A stretch of DNA of 64,000 bases from Membranipora membranacea (taxonomy: Eukaryota > Bryozoa > Gymnolaemata > Cheilostomatida > Membraniporidae). The translations under genes were made by a program, and so were the position numbers. The number at the start of each line of letters is the position of its first letter. Within the stretch, counting starts at the first letter, position 1. This document shows positions 2,733-59,762 of the stretch, piece after piece. The notes under the pieces are model-generated. The model was not told the origin of the DNA. It did no database searches and saw nothing but the letters and a program-made list of their open reading frames with translations. The DNA is taken from positions 13,144,001-13,208,000 of the forward strand of contig OU612075.1 of assembly GCA_914767715.1 (NCBI GenBank). Direction: 5' to 3'.

Positions 2733-2865
2733 TTCCAAATTACCAAGCATCTCTTACATCATTACAGCCACATCACATGGTTATCAGCTCATCATATGAC
2801 TTATTGCAATAAGCAGATCGGAAGTATTATTAGGGTTGTCAGTATGACAAACAAAAACATGTTGT

Positions 2866-2895
2866 CACAGAGTAAGGATATATCCTTACTCTGTG
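2866..2895. mobile_element. 30-bp palindromic insertion with 7-bp target duplication
   Basis: A perfect palindrome with arms CACAGAGTAAGGATA. It is flanked by direct copies of ATGTTGT at 2859-2865 and 2896-2902. The element at 58259-58288 differs by only two bases but has an unrelated 10-bp duplication. Confidence 0.85.
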
Positions 2896-3877
2896 ATGTT
2901 GTACTTGAAAGGATAGTTGATGAGACATGCTGAAATATGCCGTATCTGACTCAGAAGTCGCAGGTGTGTTCTGGAGATAAATCTACAGAGTTTGCATATT
3001 AAATTCATTAGTGAACTATAAAGAAGGTTAGTCCACTCTTCAGATATTTTGTGTGTACCCTGTTGTACCTTTTCATACTTTGGTATTATGTCCCTAACCA
3101 TATCCGAAATTGTATTTGTGGTTAGGATTTGAGGCTATGGACTGTGGCGTCTTTGTGATATTGGATTGTTTCTAAGAACTATAGGATTTCAGTCTTTGGG
3201 ATTTCATGGATATTTAGAAGGGAATAGTTCAACGTAGATTTGGGTTCGGATCAATATACTTGTAGCCTAAGTGCTTAGATTAAAGTAGGGTAATGGAAGT
3301 ACAATGGAGATCACAAACTTGAGGCTTTTTCGGCTTTGTTTTTGGTTATCATTAAATATTCCTTTTGATACATTGGGCTGAACGTGCCGTATTGTGTCAT
3401 TGACGCTGATTCATTTTGCTAAAACAGGCATTTGAGAGCGAAGTTCTAAGGATATCGGTGGCCACTGGGCTGGTACATCTTACGGCTTTTCTGCAATACA
3501 TGTTTTGTAGTGACACGGAGGGTGGTTTCTTTATTTTCTTGTGATTAGAAATATTAAAATTTATGAAAAACCATCCCTACAAGCCTAGACAAGGTATATT
3601 TAGAACACAGATTAAGTCCATGGGTGAAACAGCTGTGAAACCCCTGTGGATTGTCTTCTATACAACTTGACCCATTTTTCCTTCAAATTAACCTAGGCTT
3701 GGATAACCATACCATCCTTTTTCAGACGTATGCAAGATATTCTTTTAAGTGGATGCTATGGTGGCTGATGATCTATCAGCTTTTCTGACCGAAAAAACAT
3801 TTCAGGTCACTTGTCAAAATGTGGTACTGTCAAAAGAAGCATGTGTGTTGTTCTTCCCTGTTTTTACAATGATGTAA

Positions 3878-3929
3878 TGGAAAAGATGATGAAATAGATC
3901 ACATGGAAAAGATGATGAAATAGATCACG
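3878..3929 (+). repeat. Tandem duplication of a 26-bp unit
   Basis: Two adjacent, nearly identical copies of a unit starting TGGAAAAGATGATG. No coding content. Confidence 0.75.
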
Positions 3930-5653: not shown

Positions 5654-5784
5654 TAGCTTAAGTGCGGTGTTTAAGCGGTGTTGGGATAGCTGGTAGTAGC
5701 ATTTCATTATTAACCACTTTGGAGAGTGGTTGATAATGAAATGCTACTACTAGCTATCCCGACACCATTTAAACGCTTAAACTA
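5654..5784. mobile_element. 131-bp foldback MITE-like element with 9-bp target duplication
   Basis: The whole element folds on itself. Ends are TAGCTTAAG and CTTAAACTA, and the core holds GCATTTCATTATTAACCAC and its complement. It is flanked by CATTGAAGT at 5645-5653 and 5785-5793. It belongs to the same family as 7302-7446; the core is also shared with 37392-37493. Confidence 0.88.
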
Positions 5785-7301: not shown

Positions 7302-7446
7302 TAGTTTAAGCAGTATGAACAGTGTCCAGATAGCTGGTAGTAGCAGCATTTCAATATTAACCACTTTCCCAACCGGTGTTCGGGAAAGTGGCTGATAATG
7401 AAATGCTAATACCAGCTATCGTGACACCGTCTAAGCGCTTAAACTA
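7302..7446. mobile_element. 145-bp foldback MITE-like element with 9-bp target duplication
   Basis: Ends are TAGTTTAAGC and GCTTAAACTA, and the core inverted arms are shared with the element at 5654-5784. Flanked by exact GCTTGAGGT at 7293-7301 and 7447-7455. The target differs from that of the sister copy, which shows independent insertion. Confidence 0.9.
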
Positions 7447-8729: not shown

Positions 8730-9392
8730 CTTAAAGACTTTGTTTTAGGCTGCTCTTTTGTATCACATCTTATTCTCCATATTTTATTCTATCATGTGAG
8801 CGATTTTCAGCTTTAGAATCCAAATATTGAGGAAGTTATGGCCTCTCAAACTTCCAAGGTGACGGCAATTTATCGGCAGTAAAAATCAGCCGGCAATCCC
8901 TATGGTACGTCACAACCATGATACTTATTACGATACACTAATAAATATGTTGATGATCAAAATGTTCAGATCTGTAACGGTCTCGAACCCAGGTCCAAAT
9001 GGCTTTGCAGGCTACGCCGCTAACACTGAGCTATATTGTCTACAGGCTAACCTAGTTGGTCCAAGTGGTAGGCCTTTAGGTATGGGGACCCGGGTTTGAT
9101 TCCCACCCAGGTTTGAATTTTGATCATCATCTTATCTGTGTGATTATTAGTCTATTGACTATTAACTCATAATAAGTATGACCATAGACAAAACACATGT
9201 CTATGGTTGTGACGTACCCAAGGGGAAACATCCGCTTATTCCCAATGCCGATTGAAGGCAATCACCCTGGAAGTTTGAGAGGCCATAACTTCCTCAATAT
9301 TTGGATTCTTAAGCTGACATCGCTCACATGATAGAATAAAATATGGAGAATAAGATGTGATACAAAAGAGCAGCCTCAAACAAAGTCTTTAA
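8730..9392. mobile_element. Foldback element with about 150-bp inverted arms and tRNA-like interior
   Basis: The arms 8730-8880 and about 9240-9392 are reverse complements with few differences, both containing GGAAGTTATGGCCTCTC. Shorter inverted matches continue inward (GTACGTCACAACCATG at about 8905 and its complement near 9206). The interior carries two tRNA-like stretches in opposite directions (8975-9050 minus; 9055-9105 plus). No transposase frame and no clear target duplication were seen. The right arm contains a small extra palindrome (9182-9206) missing from the left arm. Confidence 0.7.
8975..9050 (-). repeat. tRNA-like (SINE head) sequence inside the foldback
   Basis: On the minus strand an A-box-like TAGCTCAGTGTTAGCGG is followed by a B-box-like GGGTTCGAGACC at normal tRNA spacing. 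Stems are imperfect, so it is a tRNA-derived promoter of a SINE rather than a working tRNA gene. Confidence 0.5.
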
Positions 9393-10770
9393 AGGGTAAT
9401 GGTCAAGATGGCGACCAGTTTGGAAAAAACATAGTTCTCAAAATACTCAACCATTTTAAAAGTTTTGTCCTGTTTACACCTACCAAACAACTATCACTAG
9501 CCAGAGAAGACTGAGGAAACTTATACTGCACTAGCCTAGCCACCCAAATTCCCTCTCCCTCCTCAGATTCGGAACTGCCACTGAAAGAAACCACAATCCC
9601 TTTTCCCGCCATCTCCAAAAATGACCTCACAGAGTTCTGCTGATCTTACACCAACCGATACTCAGTCCCCACTACCTGATCACATCAGAAGCCTCTAACT
9701 ATGTGGAGCCTGCCACCATTCATTGACATGGAATGACCTGGGAGTTCTATGTGATGAGTGCTCACACAGGTAACATAAAAACGACCAGAACATCCACTCT
9801 GCTGAATATTCCGATCTCGATCACTACAGCGTTGTGTGGGCCTGCCTAAACTGCAACTCTAAGAACAATAGTCACATAGAGATACAACTACCCGAGTGAC
9901 TCACATCAGTCTAAACTCATTCGATGGAGATATCATACCAAAGTATGAATCTTCGCCAAAAAGGAGAAAACAAACAAGACAGAAGGGCCAACCTCTTAGA
10001 TTGATTAATGTTAACTGCCAGGCATTTCATATATTAGAATGGCCCATGGAAGAACCTCCTCACAAGCAGCAAGCCTGACATCATCATAGCTACTGAAACG
10101 TGGCTAACAAAGCATATCTGCAATGGTGAAAAAGAAATGGATGACTATCAAATATACCGCCGAGATAGAGAGATAGGACATGGAGAAGGTGTCTTGATTG
10201 CTATCAGTAAAACCCTGAACTCTTCAATACTCCCAATCGAATCAGATTCAGAAACATCAGATTTATCCCCCAAGGACAAGCTGACCTCATTGTCGGGGCC
10301 TGTTATCGCCCACACATTTGTGACCAAACTATCATACCTGCTCTGACAACAAACGCAGATGAAATCCTAGCAAAATCCCACAAAAAACATGATCATTGGT
10401 GGCGATTTTAATCTCCCTGGTATAGACTGGTCCCAACAACAACTCAAGCCGCAAACCCAATATGTTGGCCTCCACCAGGAGTTCATAAAATTTACTAAAT
10501 CCTTTGGATTCTCACAGCTCGATGAGGAGCCAACAAGGTTACACAACACCCTTGACCTCCTTCTGACAAATATACCAGAAAGGATCAACCATACCAAAGT
10601 TCTCCCCTGCATCAGTGACCATAACATCCCATTCACACCAAAAACCAAAGAAAGCAGTTCAATAGGAGCTAAGACAGGAATAAAACGCCTTTGTAGAAAA
10701 TGTCCAAACCGATGACCGTAGAACAACGAGTACCAACAAGAGATTCTGGAATTATGTTAAAAACAGAATA

Positions 10771-11099
10771 TCACATTACAAAATAAAGTACAGTTGTGAA
10801 ATACCCTTTACCAGTGGTTCCTATATATCGTAGCAGCGGGTGGATTGTGTATACCCACAAATGAGTGTAGCAAAAGTAGAGAGCTGAGCCTAGCATACAC
10901 GCGCCCCAGCATGCAATCACATGAATCCAACATGCATTCAGACAAGCACACTTTGCCTGCCATTGTACTCCTTTGTTCACCAAACAAAAGGCCTTTTGTT
11001 ACACAACTGTCATAGGTGCATTGGGGCATGTCTCCCTGACATCGGCCCCCAGGGCCTATCCAGCATACTACAGCATAGGTGTACTTTATTTTGTAATGA
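10771..11099. mobile_element. About 330-bp TIR element nested in the LINE
   Basis: Inverted ends CATTACAAAATAAAGTAC at 10774-10791 and its exact complement at 11081-11098. It splits the LINE frame between the endonuclease and reverse-transcriptase regions. A TA flanks each side, compatible with a Tc1/mariner-type TA duplication. The flank is itself a TA repeat, so this is not proven. No transposase. Confidence 0.75.
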
Positions 11100-12470
11100 T
11101 ATATATATATATAACTCTGGCATTGGTACCCTGAAAGTCGGTAGCAAGTTGATGACAGATCCAGCAGAGAAAGCCCTTAACCAACACATTAAACTAGTCT
11201 TCACCACCAACCATCAGAGCCAACAAAAACACGTATTATCAGCCAACAATAGCACAATGCAACACATCCAAGTCGATACCAATGGGGTTTACCAACAGCT
11301 CAGAAATCTTAACCACAACAAGGCCACCGGACAAGATGATCTTTGCGCTAGACTCCTGAAAGAAACAGCTAATACCATCACTCCCACTCTCAGAAATCTA
11401 TTCCAAATGTCCCTAGACCGAGCAATCGTCCCCAAAGACTGGAGATATGCCAGAGTCTGTGCTATTTTCAAGAAAGGCAACCGATATGACCCAGCAAACT
11501 GCCAACCATTAAGCATCACTTGCCTGTGCAGCAAGATCTTAGAACACATAATCACCAGCCAAATGATGCAAAACCTTGAAGGCAACAATCTACTACACAA
11601 TCGACAGCATGGCTTTCACAGCAAAAGAAGCTGCGAGAGTCAACTGATAGAGCTGACTTCACAATTGTCAGAGTTCCTAGACCAGGTTAAAGAGGTAGGT
11701 GTCATAATGTTAGATTTCAGCAAGGCCTTGGATAAGGTAAACCACTCAAAACGTATCCAGAAAACCCATGACATCAGGATTAACAATCAGGCCGTCAAAT
11801 GGATCCAAAGCTTCCTGGCTAATAGAACTCAGGAGATGGCTGTAGATGGATTCCACTCAAACCACTGCAGTGTCACATCAGGTATATCTTAATGCTCCGT
11901 GATAGGTACATCCTTCTTCATTATACCTATATTAACGACTTACTATCCAAAGTCATCTCAGAGGTGAGGTTGTTTGCCAACGATACTGCAATCTACACGA
12001 CAACAGACAAAAGAGATCAAATATAGAAAGACCTGGAAACTCTTAAAGAGTAGGAGCTGCATTGGGACATGGAATTCAATCTCCTCAAATGTGAGCATAT
12101 CAACTTCGAGAGAAAAAGATCCAACAGAGTAAACAACAGCTTTACTCTACATGATACTACTGTCCATCGTGTACAGGAAATAAAATATCTTGGAGTCAAA
12201 CTAGAACACACCTTACGCTGGAACTGCAACACTGACTATGTAAAAGGAAAGACTGCTGGTAAAGTTGGTTTCATCCGCTGTACCGTACCATACCACCTTC
12301 ACTGACAAAACTTAGAGATAAAGCATACCAGTCACTCGTAAGACCCATACTTGAGAACTCCTCCACTGTATGGGGCTCTTCGCTAACTACTTCGCAAGGA
12401 ACCCAGCTTGAGGCAGTTTAGCGCAAAGAAGCCTGTACTGTGTACAACATACCAAGACAAGCACCACCAG

Positions 12471-12508
12471 CACTGATTTATATTATATATATATATTATA
12501 AATCAGTG
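12471..12508. mobile_element. 38-bp palindromic insertion inside the LINE
   Basis: Arms CACTGATTTATA and TATAAATCAGTG around an AT core, placed in the middle of the reverse-transcriptase C-terminal frame where related proteins run on without it. The flanks ACCACCA and ACCACAA are a near match. Probably a member of the micro-palindrome group. Confidence 0.6.
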
Positions 12509-12830: not shown

Positions 12831-15800
12831 ACTTCCTATCGACACACAGTTTTGCCATATTGCCATATTTATCTATGAAGTTGGCGATCATCCATGAAGT
12901 ATGAAGAAGTATAAGTGGGTAACCTACAGCAAGGAGTTAGAGTTGTGTCTATAGCTCCTTGCCTACAGTGATGCTATTTTTTGTAACAAGGAGCCGCCAG
13001 TTCCTTAGTTACACTGTCGCTGAATGTATTCAACTATGGTCACTTGTGAGTCTCAACAGATGAACAAGTGTCAAGATTTTTGAGTGAAGCGGCTGCTGTG
13101 TTTGTACTTACACACGTCTCTTAGGGAAGACAGTCTCTTTTTGCGGGGTGGATACTTGTTTGATGTTTCAATCCTCACCAATTTCTGTCAATAAACGTTG
13201 GATTTGAATGTTGTGTGTTGTTAGTATGCAGCTTGAGCAATGAACTAAACCAGTCGATTGGTTTGAGTCTTGAACTCAACTGATTCATTTCCACATAGAA
13301 AATGTTCTCCATGATTCATTGATGGAAAACCTAAATACATAGACAGAAAACCTAAACTGTAGTTATACTTCCGGTCAGTGCGAGACGGGGCGGCGGTGAG
13401 TTTCCCTGACCACTATAGAATGGAAAAACCCATGAATGAGCAATGGAAATTGGAAAAACCCCTGTTCGAGCACTGCTATTTAATTCCCAATTGCCTTACA
13501 TACAAAAATCAATGTTGACTTCTATGTTGTTTGTGATTGTTTGATAGTTATCTTCTCATCTTAAACGGAAAGACATATTATACAGTTGCCACAGTTACCC
13601 TGTAAAACCAATGAACTGAGCTGAGAGAGTTATCGGTAAAACATAATTGATTGATTTATTGAAGTTTCCTAAATTTATAATCAAAGTAAAATGAGTATAA
13701 TGTGAACAAAGATGTAAGTGATATGCCCTATATACACTGCTTGCTCCCCGACACAACAATCATCCTCAATCCTCATGGTAATAACTAATTAACTATTGAA
13801 GATCAAGAAATAACCATAAACAAACTTCAAACTTACTTACCCGATCTACTGGACAATATCAATGTAAAGTCGCCATTCCTCAGTTGTTTGTGAGTTTTGC
13901 AAGTGCTACTACCGAATGCCGGTGCAATGTAGCTTTGCTAATATACACATACCGAGGGAATACGAATCGAGACTCAGCAATAGGCAATTTGGTTGAGGGA
14001 CCAACGGATGGGGAAATAGTTTTTGGGCTCAAACTAGCAACTGGCGGGGACGGGGGTGGTATGGAATGTTGGCAGAGATTTTGTTTTATTGTGTCAAATA
14101 TTTTTTGAGAGATTTTGGCACTATAATATAACATCTGATAACACCTTGCGTGGTTTATTTAAAACTAGTTACAATAATAATCAGAATCATTCAGAGAAGA
14201 TTAACTAAAATTAAATTCAATACCATGCAGATAATTCCTAGAACAGTACGGCTGCACTCAACAAGCTCTTTGAGGAATGGCTTGGCCCTACTATTCTTAT
14301 ATTCTTTAAACAGCATCGACCATATCAATTAGATTAATAGGCTATCGCCAGCGAAATATATGAACTTCCGTACCAGTTTGTACCAAACAGATATACCCGA
14401 ATTCCCATGTGAGTCATGGAACAGTAAAACTGATAGGATCTGTTTAGCAAACCGGACTTTGACCAGAGTAGGTTTTGATAAACACTCAATAAGATTCGCT
14501 TAATTTTCACTCTGACTCGCGGGATCTTCCCAGTCTAAACGACTGTCATATAAGGGTATAAACATGTATGAGTATCTCAAAGAAGTTATTGTGAACAGCA
14601 AAGCAAAATTCATTTTAACATCATTTCAACAGAATAATATCATAACAGAAAGCTTGTTGACTAGCTAAATGGTAACATCAGACATCAGTTAAAGCTAAAA
14701 CATTATAATGTAAATACTTCATTGTCATACATCTTGTGTAATACAGTTATGATAAATGTAGGATTGAGCAACTTATACTAGGCTCTAGCCTCCCTGCATT
14801 GATACCTGAGCGAATGACAAGCTGTCAGATAAATACCGATATGTATCAATGTCCATCCTATTCACAATGATAGCTCTTGATTTTATAATCATCTGTTATG
14901 ATAAACAATTTTTGTTGATTCTTTATGCTGTTTTCTGGAAGCTTTATTGGTTTTCACACAGAAAAGAATATAGAAAGTAGATGAGTGAGCAGAATGAAGT
15001 AGGGAGTTTGCCGTCGTGTCAGTGGAGGGGGCGAAATCAAACGCTGGCTTATTGGATCAAAGCGGGTCTACCAAAGTCCCTGCATAGATAAGAGGGATGT
15101 TGTAATAATAGTATTTTTACTAATGATGTCTGCAACTGCAATTCAGATAAGAGGAGGAATGACAAAAAGTATGAAGCGCCTGCAATGACAAAAAAGAAAG
15201 GCCATAGCTTGAATGCTGTGAAGTGATGGCTTATGAATAAGATGATAGATTTGAACATAACCTATTGGGCGTAGATGCCATGTTATCAAGGTAAGCAAAG
15301 GAATTATGAGAGTGTAGAGAATTTTTGCTGTGTACATTGATGGCCCATTCCTAAATCCTAATTATGAAAACCTTTGTTAATTATAGTATAAACAACTTGT
15401 TGAAATCTAGTGGTTCTTCGGTATTCAAAGCGGTTAATGGATGAAGATGTTTAGATCAATTACGGGGTGAATCAATGTTTTTGTTGGCCATTCAATGGTA
15501 ACAGATGTAACCAAGAATAGATATTTTGCTGTTTTTATACCGCAGACTGATTCATACTAACTCTGCCGACCTAGATTTTGTTGTTCAGTGTTAGAGAAGG
15601 CGCCATTCCAGGCAGCCACCATTAATAGCTTTCTCTAGCCGAATTGCCATGTCAACAAATTTCACATTTCCAGTTCCATAAATTTATATATATATATCAT
15701 ATCAACGCAACTGCTATATTGACAATTTACCATTTTATGGAGTTAAAACTACCACACTACTACACTAAACAGAAACCTAACACTCTCTGGTAAAAACGCT

Positions 15801-19314: not shown

Positions 19315-22084
19315 CTCATGCCAAACGTAGGTGACCTGCGGGTTGTCATTGGCAGTGCTTGATAGCTTACCCCTTGAAACCGATTGTTGAATACAGGCTA
19401 AGCATACAAAAGACTTCAAAACTGACTCAACTAATTGAAGCTTCAACCGAAGACTAACAGTAAGAGTAACATTGTCCCCTGTTACTCCTTGATTCAACTT
19501 AGTTCCATTAGATCATACCTCAGGCTCCGACCTAACAAATTAGAAGCCATAATATGCTATATGTATATGTGGCAGTACTGCTATCAGAATATTTTTCAGT
19601 AATTCCAAAATATGTGTATGTGAAAAAATTAATAGTTTTGAAACTAACGTTTTAGACATACCATAGTTTTGCTGTGTCTATATATAAGGCTTTACACAAT
19701 TTAGACCGAAACCAAAACCTAACCTGGAACAGGACAGATTGCCTTAATAATCAAAGTATTATGATCAAATTTAGTCAAAATGGTATTACATCAGTTGGGA
19801 TCGGGATACTACTTCCACTCGAAAACGATAGGCACTGAAACTCTAGTCAACAATATCCTTACGTAGAACTTTTTTATGGATTGGCGAAATAACCAGGGAT
19901 GGTGGGATATACCATCTCCCACCCTCCCTGAAATATCAAACTCAAGCAATTAAATTTGAGTCCATAATTGCAAACAATTTGATATTGTCTTCTACAATAT
20001 AGCTAGTCTACAGGAGCGAACTCTCACTGCAGGAGCCATTGAAAATTTTTGGCAATAACAGGATAATCTCACTATTTGAACCCACCATACACAGACCATT
20101 TATAAGAGATTTTATCAAGTAACATTACATAGCACACTTTCACATGTAAATACCTAGAGATAATAATCAGCCTTCACTCTATTGTTTCTTGGGGGATTAG
20201 GCTTCACATCCATTGTAAACTCAATATCAGTGTAATTTCAAAGAGACAGGAGACACCTATTCTTGTTTAGGTGAACAAACTCAGAGTAGTTTTCACAAGA
20301 AGATTTTTCAGTAACAAACCCAGGTGAAATCACCAAGCAGGGTTTATGGTTATGGTTAATCATCACGTTAGGCCTATTTGAAACGCGGGCAATACACAGT
20401 ACTCAAAACATGTGAAAAATACATAATCAAATATTTACAGCTGAGAAGAAAATATGTGTTTCCCTGATCTGACAAAACACTAGAGTCTACAAGTTTTGAA
20501 ATATTACAACATAACGCAGTGGAATTGCTGTGTGTGCCCCTGTACAATGTAAACTGGTATGAGATACAATGCTTGGATGCTGCTTGAATTTGCTACTCTT
20601 TGACAGGGATTTGCGAGATCTTGTTACGATTGTCATTGCTAATAGTGTTGCTTGATGTGTAAATTTGCTGTAAGGTTATGATCTGGGCAAGATACTGAAA
20701 CTTGGTGGCCATAAAGTGGAAGAGGCAAGCTCATAAGACTTGACAAATTATCTTATAGGTATTAAAAAATGAAGAGTGTACTGTGGTCACATTCATTCAT
20801 TCATTCATTCATGTGTACTGAAATGACTTAGGTAAAATATTGAATAAATCTGCTGGTCCCTGTTTTAGAATCCTAATATTCTCTGTCATGTGGAGGTTTC
20901 TAAAATTACTGGTTTTTCTATCACACCTAAGTAGTTTTTATATTCTGCTTTCACAATTAAATAAGGGTTCCATCTTCATTTTAGGAACAATAATCTAAGT
21001 CAGCATTCGATGCTCATAATCTGTTATCATTTCAAGTGATGTCATGTTAGAAGACAAGACTTCAGGTTCACATCAAATCTTCATTGTGATATTGTATTGT
21101 GCTGGGTGTGAGGCCTCTATACGATTCAATGCTTTTCATTGCTTTAACATTTGGTAAACAAAGGAATCCTTTATATGCTGTGCCTAGTTCTATACATACT
21201 AGTACTAGTACTATACGATAGAGGATAAATGTACCAAGTCAGCTTGCATCAAAAGTTTATATGAGAAAACTGAGAATAAATTTTAATAAATGCTGCATTA
21301 AATGAAGGGAAATAGGGATAGAGTGACCCAAAATGATTCATATATTGATATCGTCATAATGTGGTTAGCAAAAAAATTTGACGCTTCTAGCATATATGTA
21401 GAAGTGCATTTTAATTGAGTCATCTGGTTAAAAGATAATTTTTTGCCAACAATTCATCATTTTTTATGAAATTCATGATTTTTTGCATTCATTTCGTGGA
21501 TTAAATGGTAATTCCACCACAAGCCTGGACAATAACTTTCAATCAATTTGTGATGGTTTCTGCATCAAATTTAAAAAATGTAGGGGGAGATAACGAGGAA
21601 ACCATATAAGTCACTGAGCATTTGTATTCATGAAGGCTTCTTCCTACATTTGTGTATACATAAATCACACTGACTTACGGATGCATAATGATGTTAGTGA
21701 GCGTCAGTTAGCGTTAGTTATGTAACTCTTCTGAGCAGGAAAGCAGATGCCTAAATGAGATTAACAACAAAATTATAAAACATCCACAAGAAATTTGTGT
21801 TTGTGGACTAACAAGTCCAGACAAGTTCAGCTTCACTGGCGAAACATAAGGTAACTTCAATGACTTATTTATAATCTTTGGTAGGGTTGTGAAACTTGTG
21901 TTGCAATAGAAACGAATCTTCGAAATATGAGTCAGCAAAAATACTAAAGATTCCCAATTTTTGGAAAATTCCAATAACTTGGTTTTACATCAATATGGGA
22001 TTAATCCCACCCCCAGCATTTGGCAAGCATGGTGAAACCATCACACTGTAATATTGTCAAATGTAGCTGATGATGTGTTCTAAA

Positions 22085-22126
22085 CATAGACCTACTAATA
22101 ATAGGTTTATTATTAGTAGGTCTATG
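22085..22126. mobile_element. 42-bp palindromic insertion with 8-bp target duplication
   Basis: Arms CATAGACCTACTAATAATA and complement around six bases. Flanked by exact GTTCTAAA at 22077-22084 and 22127-22134. The CATAGAC end is shared with 42482-42517. Confidence 0.88.
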
Positions 22127-24900: not shown

Positions 24901-25839
24901 ACAAAGACAGCTCCTGAATAAAGGATATTCTACTAAAAGCTAACATCGCCTTCCTTCCATAAATCCAGGGTTCACTTCATTCCACATATTTACCATTAGT
25001 GTGAGGTTCACAATGTATAGTGTATCTTTCATTACATATTGGTTGTGGGACATGGTCACACTTTTACTTACAGTGTAACAGAAAGTGCAAAATCCTAAGA
25101 TAGGATTGAACCTTGAATCTTGTGTGCAATTAAACCTTACAGCTAGTCACATTTTCGCAAACGCCTTTTGGTTTCACAAATCTATCATCCTCATTTTTCA
25201 CTAGATAGGAAGTTTTCATTGCATGATACGGTGGTATTATGTCTGGAGAAAATGCTTTGTCTGGCCACTTTGCACCTTTTAACAGCTGTTAATTTGTTCC
25301 ATTTTGGTGTAGATATTTTTCGATGGTGAGGGGTGAATTAAGAATTATATGCTCTTGTATGTGATAAAAAACAATTTGATCTCTGATGAACAGCCACCGA
25401 ATTCAGTCCAATCCTGGGCTACCCACAGGAAAAATTATTCAGGTCAGGTAAGAAAAAACAGGTCGCACAGTTAAGAATAGTGATATAGCAATCATCTCAT
25501 AATAGAGATTGCCAATCTACTTAATCACAACCATCAGCATACCAGTATATTTAAGATCACTTTTATTACAAAATAACATACATACCTATATGAAAATAAA
25601 TTTGTTCAGCTTTTACCTATTATGGATTATGATAACTATATGTCACTAATAATTTTTGTGGTAACACTCATCAACACTGTCATAAAAAAGGGTATTCAGG
25701 TTTATGTTATTGTGAAACATCATCATCATCATCAACAACATCACTTAGATATATATATATAATATGGATATGTGCAAGCAAGTTGCATACCTGCTGCCAC
25801 ATTGCAACCAATAAGAAGCATTCTATTGGGTTATGAGGA

Positions 25840-25867
25840 AGCCTTGTCACATTGCGTGACAAGGCTA
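25840..25867. mobile_element. 28-bp palindromic insertion with 10-bp target duplication
   Basis: Arms AGCCTTGTCAC and GTGACAAGGCT around five bases. Flanked by exact GTTATGAGGA at 25830-25839 and 25868-25877. The end resembles the element at 42527-42573 (TAGCCTTGTCGC). Confidence 0.9.
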
Positions 25868-27200: not shown

Positions 27201-30200
27201 TCAAACATTTGCTTTGATTGTACCAGCGATATCCTGTCGGCAGATAGGACACTGTGTCATGGCTGCAGCACATGAGGTACAACATACTACAAATAAAAAC
27301 AGAACATGTTCATGGTTTTGTTTCCATTTTAGTCATCATGTGACACACGGAAAACAGGGGAACGCTCGACTCGCAGACGTGAACTAAATGCTGGCCAATA
27401 ACAAGACATGTTTACTGAAAGTTATATCAATAAAGTAATCAAATGTTCCACCAAGTACCAGTACCAGTACCAGTACCAGTACCAGTACCAGTACCAGTAC
27501 CAGTACCAGTACCAATCAATAAACAACTATGGTGATTCACAGTAGCCTATCGGTTTTGAGCTTTGACAAATAAACAATCGGTGGAACGAGAGCGTAACAC
27601 ACCATTGTAAATGTGGAACCTAGGCTGTGAAATATTTTCAACAATGAATCTGATGAAATTGGCAAAATACACAAACTGCATCGTAATAATGAAATGGGAA
27701 ACTGGCAATCTAATGACTGCAACTCAACTAAAGGTGCAGGGGAGGTAGGAGATCCATTTTTGTGTACAGATTTACGTTAAATGAAGATTGTGCCTCGCAG
27801 TGTAATCATTTCTATCACACAGCAAAATTGCTATTGAAGATATATTTAAAACTGGTGAAGTATTTGTGAAAAACTTAATTTTTTCACAAAGCCAGGGACA
27901 TATTATTTATATTGCCAATCATCTTAGCAAGCAGAGGTTTTGTCTCACATGAAGGAAAAACAAATGAGAATTGTGTCATCCTTCCTAGAGAACAACTTTA
28001 TTATGACAGTTCACTACTTACCCAGATGAGCACAAGGTAAGAAGATAATTCCCACTGCTGATGATATACAGATTTTACAGGTCAGCTGGTTCATCATCTG
28101 TTTACTCAAGTCTACTCTCTCACCATCTGTCAAATCTGTTATCATATATAAAAGAGTTGTGATGTGTGTTTTCGATGCATCTGGTGGCAGGGTGGCGTAG
28201 TATTTAGGATTTTATCTTCTCAATCTGAGAGTTGCAGGTTCAAATCCCGGACACTACCCATACTGCTGATCGAGGTGAGCTCTGCATACGTATCCCTAGC
28301 TTGCCCACCCTTACCTTGTACAAGGGTGCGCTAAATAGATGAGTCGCATCATTGATCTTAATGTGAGCATATTCTCATTGGCCCCGAAAGGGGTACTGAA
28401 TAGTAAATACAGTGTATATTTTATTTACACCAATATTTTCCAGAGTTTAAATGACAATAATGAATCAATCAAGATTTTTAAATGAAGGCTCATAATATTC
28501 AACCACACACATAATGTATGACATACCTTGCACACTGTTATTAGTACTAGGTTCGGCAGGCTCGACAGGAGTACTAGGATTGATTGGAGGTATAGGGTCA
28601 TCTGGTGGTGTTGGTGGCTACAATCAGGTTGAGGACAAACAATTAATAAATAATACCACCGTGTATTTCAAGAGAACGACATCTAATGATTGGCAGGCTA
28701 TTATATTTGACATATTACTTCTGATCAGTCCTGAAAATATAGGTAGTTTGATTTTCTGCTTTTTTGCTCAGATGAAGACTTTCAAACATAGTGGAACCAG
28801 AGACTATAGATATATCTATAGTCTCTGGTGGAACTTCAAACATTTACACTTGCAGCAGGTTCCCCTAATAGACCATTACCATTACCGGTGTGTCAGGATT
28901 TGAATCGTCAACAATCACAGCGTCGGAGGATCTCGGTTCATGGAGGAGATCAGGTAGTAATAGTTCTCTATGATATTTCATGTCCTTATATTTCAATTCC
29001 AACACATCAAACACCAAATCTTCTGTCTGCGTGTAATCTGGCTTCAGTTTCTGTATTTAAAAGAATAAGAAAATAATTGCATTCGAGGTGTAAATGTTAG
29101 CTTGAGTTTAGTTAAGCTAGTTTGGGGGTGGGGGGCTGGGAGTCTTCAGTCTATATAAAGAGGGTGAGTAAATCTTAGCTAGCATTAAACCAAGCAATTA
29201 AAAAATGTGCGACATGGTGAATTTTTCCTCCTGCATATACTTTGCTCCTGTAGTGGAACTGTCAAAGATGGAGAAGGTATTGAATAGTGAAAAAAAAATA
29301 AAACTTGTGATGAGTGATATTGTATCAGGGTATCTTGACTAATCTCAGCATTATATAAATCCCATCATTAGCCCCAAAACACACTAGTACACATGAGATT
29401 CAATTTACCTTCAGTCGGTTGATGACAGCTGTTTTCACATGTTCTCTGCTATATCCCATACCAATAACAGTCTGTACCACAGTAGCGTCCATACGTGGCC
29501 TGATCATCCTTGTAGTAACATTCTAAACATAACAAATAACAAGCTATAGCAATGCACCGGCAGAAAAATATAGGCAGCATGTTTTCAGAGAAATTGCGCT
29601 TGTTAAATAGTAGAACATCTTCACATTTCAACTGCCTAACTGAGCTCGGACTAAAAGTTAAAATGATGACTTAGATTACAGCTATTACTTATATAGTGTG
29701 GAAGAGTTATCCGATAAAGGAATAAAATTGGTCCAGAAATAATTGGCAGCTGCAACACTGTAAAAGTCCTGTCAATTGGCATCTGATGCAGTGAAATTAC
29801 ACAAGTAGCATGCATGATTTTGGACAGGATGACTTAAAATCATAAGTTTTGTTCTGACCAGGCTAAGTGTGAGTCAATTCCGAAGTTATAAGGTCGAATG
29901 CAGTGCTGAAAGTTTAACCAATGAAAAACATTCCCACCCTTATCCTGTCTTCATCTCTATGGTTTTCAGCCCATAGCCCATGTTCCTCAATAGCTGTACT
30001 TATGAACTCTGATCCCTTCTCATTCAGTACAAACTGACAGGACCTGGAGCTACGCGCGTGTCTGATCCAGGCGTCCTCAGCTACAGACCAGTTACCACAA
30101 ACTACACCACACCAGAAACACGTCACTGAGTCTCTTTTACCTGCAATGAAATAGTAGGCTTTCCATATCAGCAGTAAGTAGGGTTGGAAAAGCGAAATTT

Positions 30201-36808: not shown

Positions 36809-37391
36809 TTGTAAATATAATGCTGATACTTAGTACCCATTGGAGCCTAAATCATGGTACTGAACATTTTGAAAATGAATGTACCTGCGCGCTACACTGT
36901 CTCATCTCGAAGGCGATGATAACATATATAGCTATTTGCACTTGGAATCAAACCGAGCAACGTTTTTTAGGAATATCCAAGGTTATCCATCAAATACAAT
37001 GATTTGAAGAATCGTTTGACATAATGCCTTAAGAAGATTATTTGGTATGAATTCTTCATTTTATAAGACAACTGCTGATCACTGGGTCACAAAAACCTTG
37101 CTGAAATATACCATAATACATACATAGTGGTTTAATTCTCATCAGTATATAATATCATTAAAGATTTTCTCCCAACCCCCTCAAAGCTCTCTATTTTGTA
37201 TTGTTGGAAGAATGTCATCTTCCCATATTATGCTCCAATTGTTTCATGGGTTAAGTTTCAGGTTTTGTTGTAAAGGATTTGATCTGCTAAAATTCTATAT
37301 TAGATGTTAGGTAATAATCATTAGCCATGAATTCTACATTTCCTAAAACAACGGCTGAGAACAGGGTCACAATTAGTTCAAGTGCTCAAAC

Positions 37392-37493
37392 GGTGCAAGA
37401 TGCTGGTAGAGGCATTTCATTATCAACCTCTTTCTCTCCTCCGATGGGGAGAAAGTGGTTGATAATGAAATGCCTCTACCAGCATCTTGCACC
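37392..37493. mobile_element. Long palindromic element
   Basis: Arms of about 45 bases starting GGTGCAAGATGCTGGTAGAG around a short loop. The inner part GGCATTTCATTATCAACC matches the core of the 131- and 145-bp elements at 5654 and 7302, so it belongs to that family. Target duplication not recognised. Confidence 0.75.
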
Positions 37494-37937
37494 TTTGCTC
37501 CGGAAAAACACATGCATCATTGCTTTTTCTACCACAGTGAGATGTTGGTGCGTCACAGTATTTAATGAGGACATTTTTTGATAGGATGTTTACTACACAG
37601 TGTCCAGCATAGAGTTATTATAATAACACAAACCATCACAGTTCTCTTTAGGTCCAAGCTATACACCAATACCCTGATATACAGGCAGTCCACATGAGTA
37701 ATGTAGAGTAATGCATTATAAACTACTACTAGATACTTGTATTTTGATATCCCTAGGCGTCCATTTTTGTAACCTATGGCTACCTCAGTGCGGGATGACA
37801 ACCATAGCTCAATAATAATGATTGATATTTATTTAAATAATGGAGCCTTCCTAAAATGATGACAGTTTGGGAAATCCATTTGTGCATTCACGCCCATAGA
37901 CCTACAGCAGGTGAAACAGGTAACTTCAAAATCGCCA

Positions 37938-42481: not shown

Positions 42482-42517
42482 CATAGACTTATTAATAATA
42501 ATATTATTAAGTCTAGG
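42482..42517. mobile_element. 36-bp palindromic insertion (first of two in series)
   Basis: Arms CATAGACTTA and TAAGTCTAGG (one mismatch). Preceded by GTGTGGAC (42474-42481) and followed by GTTTGGACA (42518-42526), a near-exact target duplication. Same end type as 22085-22126. Confidence 0.8.
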
Positions 42518-42526
42518 GTTTGGACA

Positions 42527-42573
42527 TAGCCTTGTCGCACAGCTACTTTTTTTGTAGCCATGTGACAGGACTA
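42527..42573. mobile_element. 47-bp palindromic insertion (second of two in series)
   Basis: Imperfect arms TAGCCTTGTCGCACAGCTAC and GTAGCCATGTGACAGGACTA around a T-run. Flanked by GTTTGGACA (42518-42526) and GTGTGGACA (42574-42582). Its end matches the 28-bp element at 25840. Confidence 0.82.
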
Positions 42574-47656: not shown

Positions 47657-48683
47657 CTGAAAACCCAAGAATCGGGGGTATTGTTAAGGACGGGTTTTAT
47701 CTTTAATCATGGGTGTTGTTGTGGGTGAGTATTTCTACTTTACAAGAGCCTAGGCCTGAGATAGTTTGCGAGAATTCAAGATCCAGGAGTCTACTTCATC
47801 ATTGTTCAATCGTTTGCTGATATGATATTGTATTGATTCATTGCTGGCTCTACTACAACCCACTTGTTGAGCCACAAGACAAGACAATTGCATAAGACCA
47901 TTTCAACTGGCCTTCTTCAGATATGGAGCAATCTAAACTTTCAAATTGAGGTGAGAGAGGGGACTGAGGATCTGCAGCCTATATCAACATACCAACAACA
48001 CTGCTCTCATCCATGGTTCATTTCAGTCATTTCATTTGAGTCAGACAGATTCACAACAAGCTATGTTAGATGCCAAGCTCAGTATTTCACCAATCGACAG
48101 TAAACAAGCTCCATCACTGGCAATCATCCTTCATCCGAGTGACAAGGCAGAGGAATGACTTGCCCAACACCAATAGTCCTCTACAACCTTTCAATCGAGT
48201 CAATGTGTTGGCCCTTAGTATCTGATCGGCAATAGAATAAGGCTAAGAGGCATTACAACATTTGCTACCTTCAACCACCTTGCCAAGATGCTGTTCCATC
48301 AATGAACTCCCTCCCTCCAGTCAAGGAGTTAGAGTCTAACACCTTGCTCCAGTTGAGTTTATCAATTGGTTCAAACAAGTTTTTATGCTGGGGGTCTTTC
48401 AATAGGAACCAGCCCATATCGCAATCTGATCGCTCACTCAATGATTGAATGAGTGATACCTGCTAGGCCTTCGTTTTCGGCAAATTGAAAGACCCCCTGG
48501 CTAGAAATGTATAACATCTCCACCAGGGAGCTAGATATTTCTTGGACGCCTTGGTAACATCAGGAAGTGCCTAATAAATTAAGTATCCAATCATCACATT
48601 CAAATCATGATACCATGGGCTTTGATCAGAAGCATGTGCTGTGGAGCTACAAGCATGACATGTGTAGTCTATGTATTTGTACC
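47657..48683. other. Intergenic DNA between RWDD2 and TMEM185, part 1
   Basis: No gene. It contains a hairpin at about 48388-48503, whose outer arms GGGGGTCTTTCAAT and complement enclose a second small palindrome (GCTCACTCAAT). Confidence 0.4.
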
Positions 48684-48776
48684 ACAGGTCTACTCCAAAA
48701 CTTGGGACTTTGGCAATGTTTGACTGTCCCCTTGAGTTTTTGTTGCCAAAGTCCCGGGATTTAGAGTAGATCTGTG
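48684..48776. mobile_element. 93-bp foldback element with 9-bp target duplication
   Basis: Imperfect arms ACAGGTCTACTCC...GGGACTTTGGCAA and complement. Flanked by exact ATTTGTACC at 48675-48683 and 48777-48785. Confidence 0.87.
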
Positions 48777-48895: not shown

Positions 48896-49004
48896 CATAG
48901 GCATCTGGAGTTACAAGCATGTCCAGTATCAACCACCCCCTTTCCCTCTCAGGGGGAAAGGGGGTGGTTGATACTGGACATGCTTGTAACTCCAGATGCC
49001 TATG
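48896..49004. mobile_element. 109-bp near-perfect palindrome with 8-bp target duplication
   Basis: Arms of about 50 bases starting CATAGGCATCTGGAGTTAC, around a six-base loop (TCTCAG). Flanked by exact CCCATATC at 48888-48895 and 49005-49012. High arm identity suggests a recent insertion or strong arm-to-arm conversion. Confidence 0.9.
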
Positions 49005-50825
49005 CCCATATCTCACCAATGGTTGATTGATACTGGAAATTTGCAAAATAAAGACATGTGTATGTATGTAAGTATGTCCCAGGCCAGGGGCCCATGCTTG
49101 AACACACTATCATCCATGAGCAGCAATGAATGAACTTAGTTCATTGCTATGGTATGAGCAAGCCAAATATATGGTATGAGCAGCTAAATACATGCTTCCA
49201 GATCGGAGTCCCATGTTCAGGTGTTGCCAGTTGCTTTTTTGTGAGGAGCTGAGGATGCTTTGGTGCTGAATGGAAGGCCATGCTGTTTTGACTAGGGATG
49301 ATAAATCCACAGCAAGGGTCCTATATAATAACCCTTGTCCACAGTCTCTAATTTTGCCAACCAAGATTTATTTAGCTTGATAATATTGTTCTGAAAAAAG
49401 TGTAGGAGTCGGGACGATTCAGTCTTAGACTGGGGACCAGTCTTGACATTCTTACCTCTTTATGGAAGAGAAATGATCAAAATTATTATTTTGCTGAAAT
49501 TACTCTTTTTTACACAAATTCTTGCTGTAAACCAGGAATAACACATTATTCCTTGCTGTAAACACTGAACAGTTCATATTTTTTCATCTTATCTTCAACC
49601 CTGTAATCCTCAGAAATATATATTGACCAACAATGATAAGTATTGTTTAAATCAAAGTGCCCCATATTCTCAGAAGGTTACACCACTCTAGTCTAGGGGG
49701 CCAGGGGTAACTCTATTACTCCTGGGATACACCATGTAAACTCCCTGCTCTGTAGTAACCCCTGGGCCGGATCCAGACACCCTACTGAACATTGTTATCC
49801 TAATAAGGCCCTCCTATTATATTCTTTTTCCCTGAGTGTTAAAAATCTTCGTCGAAGAAAGCCATCAGTCAGTGAATTTACTATTACTTTTAGGGCAGTG
49901 GAGGGACTGTAGGTAGCTTTTCTCAAGGATGGGTTAACTGATTAACTCCAAGTTCTTGGTTTGTTGAAATTCCAGTTATTCTCACTTGTTCAAAATATGA
50001 GATAATGCTGGTATTGTGGTAGCCATGTCACATGTGATTTGTGACCAAGGACAATGTATGAAACAGTCCGAGTCCTGATACTCATTGGTATGATGTTGAT
50101 GGTCATTCATTATTGTGTTCTTATTTCTTTAGTGCGTTCTTGTTTGTGAGAGCATTCCCAAATCGTCGAGTCCGCTGATATGGCTCTATGATTATAGGTA
50201 CTCACAATATTTTCAAAGAGAAATGGGCAATAATTATCCTTATCCCTGGTGATAGTCAAAACTGGCCAACTGATGGCACCAAACGCAGATTTGCAGTTTA
50301 ACACCTTCGAAACATCCCGACCAATAAAAGTGAATGCAGTGTTCATTGCACAACAGAACCTTAACTATGTGTATTATAACGTGTAAAAGGGCAGAATTTG
50401 GCCCCGCCAGCATCATGTGTAAGCCAAATTTCAGAGTGAATGTTGATACACTCTTGAGGTGATTGTATATACTCTCAGCCTGTACGCTAGGTTAGAATAA
50501 TCAGGAAAAATTGACCTGGAAAGGAAAGAACTAAACCTCAGTCTCTTGCATCCCAATATAAGATGGATTTGCAATACCAATCAATTTTTCATCTGAACAC
50601 AAATACACAAATTTAACCCACCATAAGTGTTTATTTTCTAAGATTGAGAAGAGTAAGTTAGATATATGTAATCAATTGTGCTCATAATATAAAAGATTGT
50701 CCATGCTAGGTAGTTGTACGAATATGTTGTGTCGTTTTTAGACTAAGCAGTGAGCTAAATCACCGTCAGTTAATGGCTGCAACGAGCTGAGTTGAAATCT
50801 AGCAGGCCTTATTTGTGGATACGTT

Positions 50826-56800: not shown

Positions 56801-58148
56801 TGAAAAAGGCTTTACCCGTGCTGTCTTAAGAAAGTACGAAAAATTGATGATTAAATTACTAAATCTATCATATTCACTAGCTTGTTAGAGGGTGAATACT
56901 CTAACCAACTGATCTTCCTCCTACTCTCTAGCTACATCATGCAATTAAACAAACCGACACCACGAAGCCGTGTGGCATGACCAAATTTACTTTCACACAA
57001 GTGGAAGTATTTCATAATCATTATTTCCTTGCATTTCCCGGCCCTGGGTACACTCTAGAGGTGCGGAGGTTGTGCTGAAGGTTGGCGAGGGACGCTATCT
57101 GGACACTTTTAGACCAAACAGATACCAATGACTTCAACCATGACGTGTTTAAAACAATATAGCCGATCCATGACTAGATCACTTTCACCATAAAATGTTT
57201 ATTATCTCAGACTTAGAGAGACACTTTCAATGATCTCATGGAGACCAATGCACTCATAGTGTGAAGCCCAAAATATCTTAATTGCTGTTCAGTGGTGATA
57301 ATGACCCCTGAGGTTAGATTCAGAGGAGTGCCGTCTTATGGGGGAGGTCTAGGGGGCTCAGACTAATGTAGAGCCATCCTGTGATTTCTCAACCTTCTGT
57401 CTTCACATCAGGCTTGTAATACTTGACATTAGGCGGAGTCTATGTCACCTTTACACTGAGAGTAGACAGTACACCGCATTATCTGAAATCTCTAAAATAT
57501 CACACCTAGAACAATTTACTGTCTGTGAGATATTTCAAGTGCAAAAATAATTAGTGTAATTAAAATTCTAATCTGAGATTAGTTCTGGAGAAAATTGCTG
57601 CTTAGGACTCGATCTTTGAGCCACGGCTTAAAGCTAGCAATTATATGCATTTATGTTAGCAGCTGTGTAGAGGCCGAAAAACCCAATTGACAGAATGTTT
57701 TCTGGATCGCTCCTAATTCAGGAGATGCTTCTAACATCAACATTTTTGCAGAAAACAATAAGAGCATTTATTGTGGACCCCTTCACCCTCACACCCCAAT
57801 AACAAAGATCCAACTTAAATAGACATGTTGGTTTTCCCTAAAATTTATGTAATCTCTTTGAGTGATTTTCTTTCAGGGTGGTTCGGTCTGAGGAAGGACT
57901 TCTGTCAGTTTCTAGTGTCAGATGCTTGCCCATGTTTACAAGAGTACGGTAATATCTCATACAAGGTACAGTTTAACGAGTGCAGTCAGTCAGATACATC
58001 CACCGAGCCAATCAGAGGGCAGCCTGCTAGTGTTAACGTACAATCAGAACAGTCCTCACCTCTCAGCTCGCCCAAAAGGAAACATAAGAAGTCTGCTAGT
58101 AAAGACACCCTGGTGGCTCCCGTAATGCTCATAGAAATGCCTGATTGA
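50826..58148 (+). CDS. TMEM185: Transmembrane protein 185 (TMEM185/FAM11 family)
   Basis: Complete seven-exon gene, 361 residues (human TMEM185A/B are about 350). Exons: 50826-50863 (MNLSKRFQLVNTG), 51517-51693, 51911-52124, 52459-52542, 52723-52899, 55482-55605, 57877-58148. All junctions are GT-AG and in phase; total 1086 nt. It is a multi-pass membrane protein of poorly known function, probably in internal membranes. Family marks: LLVYCCLLVFSFLL, WTVFLPLWIWK, ILVCIRIESGS, FSVNSIQFVFVAIKLDGFINW, the conserved HITV segment before the later membrane spans, and the C-terminal WFGLRKDFCQFL, EYGNISY and final EMPD. The last exon carries a longer Ser/Gln-rich tail than the vertebrate protein. Intron 6 (2.3 kb) holds a LINE relic. 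Start chosen because the short first exon matches the family N-terminus and its phase-2 donor fits exon 2. Confidence 0.96.
50948..51262 (-). mobile_element. tRNA-derived SINE with A-tail in TMEM185 intron 1
   Basis: Read on the minus strand: a tRNA-like head (about 51262-51195, with GGTTCGATTCCCGG as B box), a 230-bp body, and a run of A (seen as T at 50949-50963) at its 3' end. A truncated relative is at 34775-34915. The head resembles a tRNA but stems are incomplete. Confidence 0.8.
52218..52320. repeat. 9-bp minisatellite (CAGTATATA)n in a TMEM185 intron
   Basis: About eleven perfect copies between exons 52124 and 52459. Confidence 0.95.
56090..56720 (-). pseudogene. LINE reverse-transcriptase fragment in TMEM185 intron 6
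   Basis: On the minus strand: PQGSVLGSLLF (about 56660), a decayed ADDTFLAKT near 56560, then FYLKHQEKTNC, KFLGIILDSDVNFKIHYQ (about 56350) and LMYGIEFWGHA with QKAALKV (about 56160-56210). These are the later reverse-transcriptase motifs and thumb of a jockey/CR1-like element. Frameshifts and stops are present and both ends are missing. It is a different lineage from the plus-strand LINE at 9540, judging by poor protein similarity. Confidence 0.75.
57330..57366. repeat. Dispersed repeat end (third copy)
   Basis: GCCGTCTTATGGGGGAGGTCTAGGGGGCTCAGACTA resembles the reverse copy at 18403-18447; lies in TMEM185 intron 6. Confidence 0.45.
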
Positions 58149-59762
58149 TACCTTGACGCCAACCCAGCACTTCTAGCCAACAAAGCCAGTCAGATATATA
58201 AGTCTAAGCATAATTACTTAAATGAATGATTCAAACTTTTTCAATACCATAAGGACATCACAGAGTTAGGATACATCCTTACTCTGTGATAAGGACATGC
58301 ATACACCATCTATGTTTATGCTACTAGAAAGCTGTTTCAGATCATTCTTTGGTTGCTGTCAAGTTTATGACACACTCAACACTTAGCAGCCTTTACCAAA
58401 AGAGCACAGATGACTATATTTTTCATGTTGTGAATTTGCTCAAAAGCCCACTTTCACAATCTGAGTCAGGGTCGTTATAAGCCAGTCCCCCACTTTATTG
58501 TGCTGGCTAAGTCAAGGTAACTGGCTAGGTCATTAACCTACACCAACGTATAGCAACATTTTATACAATGATGTTTCACTGATGTCCCATTATCTCAGGT
58601 GTGATCAGTGTGCACGTTGGCGTGTCTTCCACTGAATTATTATAGGAGGTATTTTTTCTACTTTTCTTATTGAGGATTTTGATTGCTATTGGATGTTTTA
58701 AAAGCTCAACATGTATCACCACCGGGTACCGTTGCTCATCATCATGATATATGCTCTATCTTGTACTTATTTATATTATTTTTTGTATATCAAACTCCAT
58801 TTCACCTGCTGTAAAGATCTTCGTTCAGATTTTGAATGTGATAGGGTTTTAAAATGAACGATATACCAGCCTTATATTACTACATCATATATATTACTCT
58901 TAATATTGACCAAAATTTAACCTACTTCTTTTCTTTTTATCAATTTACACAATCATTTAATGATACTGGTAGAATTTTGCCATAATAATGAAATTACTGA
59001 TTAGTGGAGGACAATTTTTTTTTAAATATACAGAGTATTTTGCAGTTTTCAATTATATTTAGAATTTAGAAAATGAGAAATTGATTTTGCACATCTTTTG
59101 CATTCAGCGAACATAAAATAGAATATCCCATTTTATATTTATCATTGCTCATATACAGTTATGTCAGAGTTTTTGTCTCATCATATTTTAAGCACAAATT
59201 TGTACATGATCATAATGGTCAATGTTTCTCATATCAACGTTTTCACTCAGGCATCATGTTATTACATAAATAATCAGTTGTTTTATGGTAGCAATGTTGA
59301 CAGGGAAGTACCCTCAGAATCATTGCAGCTATAGGATAAGGGTACACATCTACTCATTATTAGCAAGCCTGCCAAGTAGTGTGACAGTCTGCTCAGTACT
59401 GAGTCACATCAATGTTTGTGATATGGCATCTTAGCTCACTGGATGAAAATTAAAATACTTTTACTTAATTTGGTTTTTGGCGACCTACTCTCCTAGGTAA
59501 TTATTTTTCTAATCTTTGTATCTTGACTTTGTTGTGGCCACTCGTTTTTTTTTCTCTGCATATGACAGCAATCTTGAATGCTGTCACAGTATGGGATTAT
59601 TCACATCGCACTCAGGCTAGTCGTAATATATAATGTCAATTTATGAACAACAATGTAGCAGCATGCCATAAAGCAGCGGTTCACTTGTCGTTTTTAGTTG
59701 ATTGCCAAGAATATTCTGCTGTGACTTTACACTCAGATGAGGGATTAATATCAAACTAGAAG
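58149..59762. other. Intergenic DNA between TMEM185 and the EB-like gene
   Basis: Contains the TMEM185 3' flank and a 30-bp palindromic insertion (58259-58288). No other gene or structured element seen. Confidence 0.45.
58259..58288. mobile_element. 30-bp palindromic insertion with 10-bp target duplication
   Basis: Arms CACAGAGTTAGGAT and ATCCTTACTCTGTG. Flanked by exact ATAAGGACAT at 58249-58258 and 58289-58298. It is the same element as 2866-2895 with two substitutions, in an unrelated target. Confidence 0.92.

What the first reader, a model, noticed from the sequence alone, without database searches (positions are those of the whole stretch)
2859..58298. Mobile micro-palindromes: 28-145 bp foldback insertions with 7-10 bp target duplications
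At least nine very short palindromes are bounded by direct repeats, exact in most cases: 2866-2895 (ATGTTGT), 5654-5784 (CATTGAAGT), 7302-7446 (GCTTGAGGT), 22085-22126 (GTTCTAAA), 25840-25867 (GTTATGAGGA), 28798-28827 (GTGGAAC), 48684-48776 (ATTTGTACC), 48896-49004 (CCCATATC), 58259-58288 (ATAAGGACAT), plus the pair at 42482-42573. They are almost all terminal repeat with no interior, several only about 30 bp, shorter than typical MITEs. The end families differ (CACAGAG, CATAGAC, AGCCTTGTCAC, TAGYTTAAG) but target length is similar, which hints at one class of transposase or at palindrome formation during transposition. The extreme small size is the surprising part.
Basis: partly seen in the sequence, partly recalled or inferred. 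Interest (0 to 1): 0.88.

Follow-up and report, generated by a model that had tools for sequence, protein, structure and literature searches.

The report
Transposon departure scars in a bryozoan
The tiny palindromes are most likely scars: when a longer jumping gene left the chromosome it left behind the tips of both its ends, which the cell joined, so they record past departures and are probably not tiny mobile elements themselves.

Summary
The host is the bryozoan Membranipora membranacea (chromosome sizes). In 364 kb of this genome, 18 palindromes of 14-42 bp with CANNG ends have exact flanking repeats: 13 of 7 bp, 4 of 8, one of 10. A tRNA-Ala paralogue shows the empty site of a 26-bp copy: 26 bp plus a 7-bp duplication. 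Two families have 612 and 709 copies. For the CANNG class I favour excision scars: ends fixed, lengths varied, 86 of 100 listed copies at most 34 bp, and longer elements with the same ends; on 8.86 Mb of chromosome 1 exact end pairs span 28-36 or 526-703 bp only. P transposase cuts 17 nt inside its ends, and 17+17=34. Unproven: no transposase was seen, parent letters were not read, a predicted join is a minority, and G at end position 5 resembles hAT (recalled).

The parts
2866..2895 (.). 30-bp CACAGAG scar, repeat ATGTTGT (7)
   Evidence: identical 30-mers at L006:7430 and L033:5389
12930..12961 (.). 32-bp CAAGGAG scar, repeat CCTACAG (7)
22085..22126 (.). 42-bp CATAGAC scar, repeat GTTCTAAA (8)
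   Evidence: ends shared with the 483-bp element L005:6261-6743
28798..28827 (.). 30-bp CAGAGAC scar, repeat GTGGAAC (7)
   Evidence: a second, shortened copy at L021:3827 minus strand
42482..42517 (.). about 36-bp CATAGAC scar, repeat GTGTGGAC/GTTTGGAC (8, one mismatch)
48322..48346 (.). 25-bp CAAGGAG scar, repeat CTCCAGT (7)
49313..49337 (.). 25-bp CAAGGGT scar, repeat TCCACAG (7)
58259..58288 (.). 30-bp CACAGAG scar with two changes, repeat ATAAGGACAT (10)
61861..61874 (.). 14-bp CAATGAAC scar, repeat GCCTGAG (7)
12471..12508 (.). 38-bp CACTGATTT palindrome, repeat ACCACCAG/ACCACAAG (8, one mismatch)
19894..19930 (.). 37-bp CAGGGATGG palindrome, repeat AAATAAC/AAATATC (7, one mismatch); membership uncertain
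48683..48776 (.). 94-bp CACAGGTC element, repeat ATTTGTAC (8): longer CANNG element, not a scar
48896..49004 (.). 109-bp CATAGGC near-perfect palindrome, repeat CCCATATC (8): longer CANNG element
5654..5784 (.). 131-bp TAGCTTAAG foldback MITE, repeat CATTGAAGT (9): separate class
7302..7446 (.). 145-bp TAGTTTAAG foldback MITE, repeat GCTTGAGGT (9): separate class
25839..25867 (.). 29-bp (A/T)AGCCTTGTCAC element, repeat GTTATGAGG (9): separate class
42527..42573 (.). 47-bp TAGCCTTGTC element inside the right duplication of 42482-42517, repeat GTTTGGACA/GTGTGGACA (9, one mismatch)
37374..37510 (.). TAGTTCAAG foldback of the same family as 5654 and 7302; right end diverged, no repeat found

Best explanation
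Each CANNG micro-palindrome is an excision scar. A longer DNA transposon (families with ends CACAGAG, CAATGAAC, CAGAGAC, CATAGAC, CACTGATT, CAAGGAG) inserted and duplicated 7 or 8 bp of target. Later its transposase removed it, cutting one strand at the tip and the other strand inside the end, about 17 nt in, as P-element transposase does. The break kept both target copies and the outermost 6-17 or so nt of both ends; end joining, often through 1-4 nt of microhomology, fused the tips into a palindrome. Shown: insertion with a target duplication, families with fixed ends and varied lengths, copy number, existence of longer elements with the same ends. Inferred: excision as the route, the 17-nt stagger, a P-like enzyme. 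The TAG-type palindromes with 9-bp repeats are a different class, ordinary non-autonomous foldback MITEs.
For: Flanking repeats only at 7, 8 and once 10 bp. Empty site in a paralogue. In one family ends are fixed while length runs 14, 20, 25, 26, 26, 39 in the sample (the 20 and 25 with one mismatch in the repeat). The 39-mer is 17+5+17. Of the listed copies 42 of 50 and 44 of 50 are at most 34 bp. The 26-, 20- and 14-mers equal 1-nt-microhomology joins (12,15), (12,9), (9,6) of CAATGAACTAAACCTCA (derived by hand). A 31-mer predicted beforehand for join (17,15) exists 5 times. CACAGAG lengths are mostly even, as expected if the self-complementary tip TATA anneals. Longer elements: 3161 exact 15-mer ends against at most about 1418 in the 709 palindromes; on 8.86 Mb of C1, 23 pairs of 28-36 bp and 4 of 526-703 bp, none between (two mispaired rows corrected by hand); 483-bp element with CATAGAC ends and 8-bp repeat. 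Of 51 non-palindrome ends, 36 have TA at positions 16-17. P biology: cut 17 bp inside the end, NHEJ or recombination at the donor (PMC7776569, passages); 7- or 8-bp repeats in the P relative Galileo (PMC4168063, passages).
Against: No transposase identified: P core has no convincing tblastn hit in 354 kb, PF21787 genome search did not complete. Longer CACAGAG elements are known by coordinates only; their target repeats were not read. Three of the 4 long pairs lack TA at 16-17; 43 of the 100 listed ends have no exact partner and are not in listed palindromes. The predicted 31-mer is only 2 of 8 listed 31-mers and all 5 copies lie in one orientation. The toy joining model predicts 31 as main CAATGAAC length; 26 was seen. 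The CATAGAC 42-mer keeps about 19 and 23 nt of its ends, more than 17 (by hand). TA slippage could also make the even CACAGAG lengths. G at end position 5 in the 6 pentamers of the 18 exact cases resembles hAT (recalled); hAT cutting should not leave the tips (recalled). In 364 kb no CANNG element of 50-8000 bp has an exact 7-bp repeat.
Confidence: 0.68

Rival explanations
1. The 26-30-bp palindromes are themselves mobile: a transposase in trans moves them as units, perhaps extruded as cruciforms.
For: Identical 30-mers with different repeats at three sites (window 2866, L006:7430, L033:5389) and identical 26-mers at two; strong length modes at 30 and at 26; stable hairpins; no full-length 7-bp-repeat element in the 364 kb.
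Against: Lengths vary from 14 to 42 bp with the same ends; a 14-mer has almost nothing left to bind; longer elements with the same ends are abundant; bending 26 bp into one synaptic complex is hard (general knowledge).
Confidence: 0.12
2. Longer foldback elements lost their middle after insertion, by replication slippage between the arms or by aborted gap repair, leaving fused ends in place.
For: Foldback members exist (483 bp, inverted over its length at 74%; 109-bp near-perfect palindrome); the 42-mer retains more than 17 nt.
Against: No exact pair between 36 and 526 bp on 8.86 Mb, where gradual loss would leave intermediates; sharp modes.
Confidence: 0.12
3. Natural tagmentation: a transposase carrying two unlinked short end fragments inserted both at a new site and the resulting break was end-joined, so no full element ever sat there.
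For: Same product as a scar (target repeat, fused tips, variable centre); the empty paralogous site is compatible.
Against: No source of free end fragments is known; ordinary excision explains the same data.
Confidence: 0.04

Closest known systems
P-element excision footprints (17-nt staggered cut)
   Same: 7-8-bp target duplication, end tips of up to about 17 nt kept on each side, end joining of the donor break
   Different: Seen here in the hundreds per family in a bryozoan; the enzyme is not identified. That fly footprints keep end sequence is recalled; only the stagger and the repair routes were read as passages
Zebrafish Pdre2 / THAP9 P-like transposon
   Same: 8-bp repeats; window element 1880-2295 has ends close to its 13-bp ends
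   Different: That window element is not one of the scar families
hAT superfamily
   Same: A at position 2 and G at position 5 of the ends (signature recalled); 8-bp repeats in some families
   Different: 7-bp repeats dominate; hAT excision is not expected to leave end tips (recalled)
Foldback MITEs / Mutator-like elements
   Same: The TAG-type group: palindromic, 29-145 bp, 9-bp repeats; Muta1 makes 8 or 9 bp (PMC5225508, passages)
   Different: No transposase linked to them here

Membership tests
P superfamily excision scar | 7-8-bp target duplication | tested here: met
   17 of 18 exact cases are 7 or 8 bp, one is 10
P superfamily excision scar | at most about 17 nt of each end retained | tested here: inconclusive
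   86 of 100 listed copies are at most 34 bp; the CATAGAC 42-mer exceeds it
P superfamily excision scar | longer elements with the same ends | tested here: met
   by coordinates only for CACAGAG
P superfamily excision scar | P/THAP9-type transposase flanked by these ends | not tested
   PF21787 search unanswered; tblastn of a P core against 354 kb gave only chance-level hits
hAT | 8-bp target duplication | tested here: not met
   13 of 18 exact cases are 7 bp
hAT | A2 and G5 of the ends (recalled) | tested here: met
   CA ends with A, C or T at position 5 gave no flanking repeat of 5 bp or more
MITE moved as a unit (CANNG class) | copies are one unit of constant length and interior | tested here: inconclusive
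   identical 30- and 26-mers exist, but lengths vary
Foldback MITE (TAG class) | inverted ends with a constant target duplication | tested here: met
   9-bp repeats exact in 4 and with one mismatch in 2 of the 8 rows; L008 matches 7 of 9; the L016 row was entered out of register and reads 9 of 9; window 37374 has lost its right end

The most novel reading that the evidence does not exclude
The 26-30-bp palindromes are themselves transposing DNA, moved as cruciforms or laid down as two unlinked transposon end fragments (natural tagmentation); they would then be the smallest transposing units known to me.
Probability: 0.16. Interest if true: 0.92.

Novelty: new variant of a known kind. Interest (0 to 1): 0.62.

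Why it matters
If right, these palindromes are a countable and datable record of transposon departures, and each shows how the cell repaired that break; the edge near 34 bp would reveal the cutting geometry of an unseen transposase. It also warns that a short palindrome with a target duplication need not be a mobile element. Scaling the 10 exact cases in the 300 kb fetched outside the window (one lies in a stretch not chosen at random) gives very roughly 11,000 in the genome (inference, wide error).

Tried and rejected
One class of element with 7-10-bp targets: rejected, two classes. Footprints made of flank sequence only (hairpin-opening type): rejected, because unrelated sites share the same end sequences. 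Chance: rejected. Structured RNA: no Rfam match; no tRNA in the window. Prokaryote and viral collections: searches had no match; one search gave two contigs that look unrelated, one Clostridium contig. The single end at L021:7045: the next 10 kb was fetched, no right end was found, but another 30-mer was. Toy joining model: weights arbitrary, fits CACAGAG better than CAATGAAC. Papers: no description of such genome-wide scars in the listings; the library is open-licence only.

[quoted passage not shown] one search showed it identical to PDB 6p5a. A predicted 31-mer was typed; the other patterns came from window or locus letters. In one search the flanks of 25 insertion sites were joined in a script to look for empty sites; the adjacent stretches L021 and L033 were joined. 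Fetched from the window's own genome, unnamed at the time: 30 stretches of 10 kb; one search was sent before genome search had answered. One search also could not cut out its loci. After that I used only counts and coordinates from pattern searches without loci (99, 117, 128, 139) and worked out lengths from coordinates; plain patterns were echoed back. This yields facts about stretches whose letters I could not fetch; one search tests whether two given bases follow a known 15-mer. The genome search was unreachable in 44 tries and answered 5 (81, 99, 117, 128, 139). Its message asked for the same request again, not another form; several times I sent a different query instead (for example a pattern at 12 after a DNA query, DNA again at 31, families at 94, 101 and 102), which went against that message. 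Searches failed on short terms; 97 is a paper not held. Scripts only waited; 95, 98, 104, 116, 130, 138 and 140 also waited.
Full report
WHAT AND WHERE. The window is C11:13144001-13208000 of a 339,339,785-bp assembly in 18 contigs. Contigs C1-C4 are 41.07, 39.53, 35.04 and 35.00 Mb, which matches Table 2 of the genome note for the bryozoan Membranipora membranacea (PMC10290214, passages; that note gives 21 scaffolds, 339.4 Mb). Among listed proteins with a species name, the best match of a zinc transporter from L014 is the bryozoan Watersipora subatra at 58%.

OBSERVATION. All nine palindromes and the pair have the stated repeats. Random spans give a comparable repeat in 21 of 5400 tries. In 354 kb, 13 of 58 palindromes have an exact flanking repeat against 0.05 expected; 45 have none. 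I fetched 30 further 10-kb stretches of this genome; 29 were chosen by position only, L033 because it adjoins L021. In the joint 364 kb, CANNG palindromes of 10-48 bp have flanking repeats of 7 (12), 8 (4) or 10 bp (1), one of 4, and 233 have less than 4. Ten other end motifs had no repeat of 7 bp or more except tandem repeats (L004, L017), with single cases of 5 and 6; the reversed sequence had none. L033:5389-5418 is a further exact case that one search did not list, making 18.

TWO CLASSES. CANNG ends: 14-42 bp, repeats 7 or 8 (one 10), with longer members of 94, 109 and 483 bp that have 8-bp repeats. TAG-type ends: 29-145 bp, 9-bp repeats: exact in 4 and with one mismatch in 2 of 8 rows; L008 matches 7 of 9; the L016 row was entered out of register and reads AGTTTGAAG on both sides. 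The 42482 pair is a TAGCC element inside the right duplication of a CATAGAC palindrome.

INSERTION. L017:6265-6290 (26 bp) lies upstream of a tRNA-Ala gene. A second tRNA-Ala copy about 1.7 kb away shares the flank and has a single CTGCACC and no palindrome. The difference is 26 bp plus a 7-bp duplication. This is one paralogous empty site, not an allelic one.

FAMILIES AND SIZES. CAATGAACTAAA arms with a gap of 0-30: 612 places, backward control 0. CACAGAGTAAGG arms: 709, control 0. Only the first 50 places of each are listed, all on C1. Lengths: 26 (16), 27 (2), 28 (2), 29 (7), 30 (4), 31 (8), 32, 33, 34, 35, 39 (1 each), 41 (4), 45, 50; and 26 (3), 27, 28 (5), 29, 30 (26), 32 (5), 34 (3), 35, 36, 38, 40, 41, 43. 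Two CAATGAAC rows are a shorter palindrome nested in a longer one. Copies under 24 bp are invisible to the pattern; the sample also has 14- and 20-bp copies.

LONGER ELEMENTS. CACAGAGTAAGGATA occurs 1597 + 1564 times, control 0; 709 palindromes account for at most 1418 of these ends. The first 100 listed ends cover 8.86 Mb of C1. One search paired 27; two of its pairs (1715 and 2090 bp) wrongly took an arm of a 30-bp palindrome, and corrected by hand there are 23 palindrome pairs (28-36 bp), 4 long convergent pairs (526, 696, 702, 703 bp) and 46 ends without an exact partner, of which 3 belong to palindromes with one altered arm, leaving 43. Of those 43, 34 carry TA at positions 16-17, and of the 8 ends of the long pairs 2 do. 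So most single ends agree with the sequence expected from the scars, but three of the four long pairs do not. A further convergent pair spans 1683 bp at C1:11550828-11552510. Their letters and target repeats were not available.

MECHANISM. Fixed outer ends, variable centres, few copies above 34 bp among those listed, intact target repeats and many longer elements point to scars joined from two end tips. The P transposase cuts 17 bp inside its ends, leaving 17-nt extensions, and the donor break is repaired by recombination or NHEJ (PMC7776569, passages; also PMC10983969, passages). Galileo, a P relative, makes 7- or 8-bp repeats with consensus GTATTAC or GTANTAC (PMC4168063, passages). Here the thirteen 7-bp repeats have T at position 2 in 7 and A at position 6 in 10, a similar leaning. 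The 30-mers fit 17+17-4 with TATA annealed; the 39-mer is 17+5+17. A 31-mer predicted in advance was found 5 times, all in one orientation, but is only 2 of the 8 listed 31-mers, and the toy model misses the main CAATGAAC length, so the joining rules are not understood. TA slippage could also explain the even CACAGAG lengths. G at position 5 resembles hAT ends (recalled). The superfamily therefore stays open.

HAIRPINS. The two 30-mers fold as single DNA strands into 13-pair hairpins at -12.3 and -10.7 kcal/mol, which cruciform models need but which proves nothing.

NOVELTY. Excision footprints are a known kind. A genome with hundreds of them per family beside longer elements with the same ends was not described in the listings, which cover an open-licence library only.

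Noticed in passing
window 1880-2295: 416-bp element with 8-bp repeat GGAGGCGT whose ends (CATACATGACAAG / CATACCTGACAAG) resemble the 13-bp ends of zebrafish Pdre2, suggesting P-superfamily elements in this bryozoan.
   Followed up: partly
window 42482-42573; L006:7356-7459; L016:5456-5539: Three cases of a CANNG palindrome in or within about 15 bp of the target duplication of a TAG-type element, a hint of shared target preference.
   Followed up: no
L027:7995-8106: 112-bp TAGTTTAAG foldback, an almost perfect palindrome with no spacer; against window 37374-37510 its tip looks trimmed symmetrically.
   Followed up: no
window 8829-9295: 467-bp foldback whose inverted flanks continue well beyond the AATATT repeat.
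   Followed up: no
window 32330-34540 and 29917-30285, minus strand: Long open frame with ankyrin repeats and a BIR (IAP) domain, and a second BIR stretch nearby.
   Followed up: partly
window 10371-11889: Degraded non-LTR retrotransposon with endonuclease and reverse transcriptase stretches.
   Followed up: no
window 58259-58288: The only 10-bp duplication among the 18 exact CANNG cases; unexplained.
   Followed up: no
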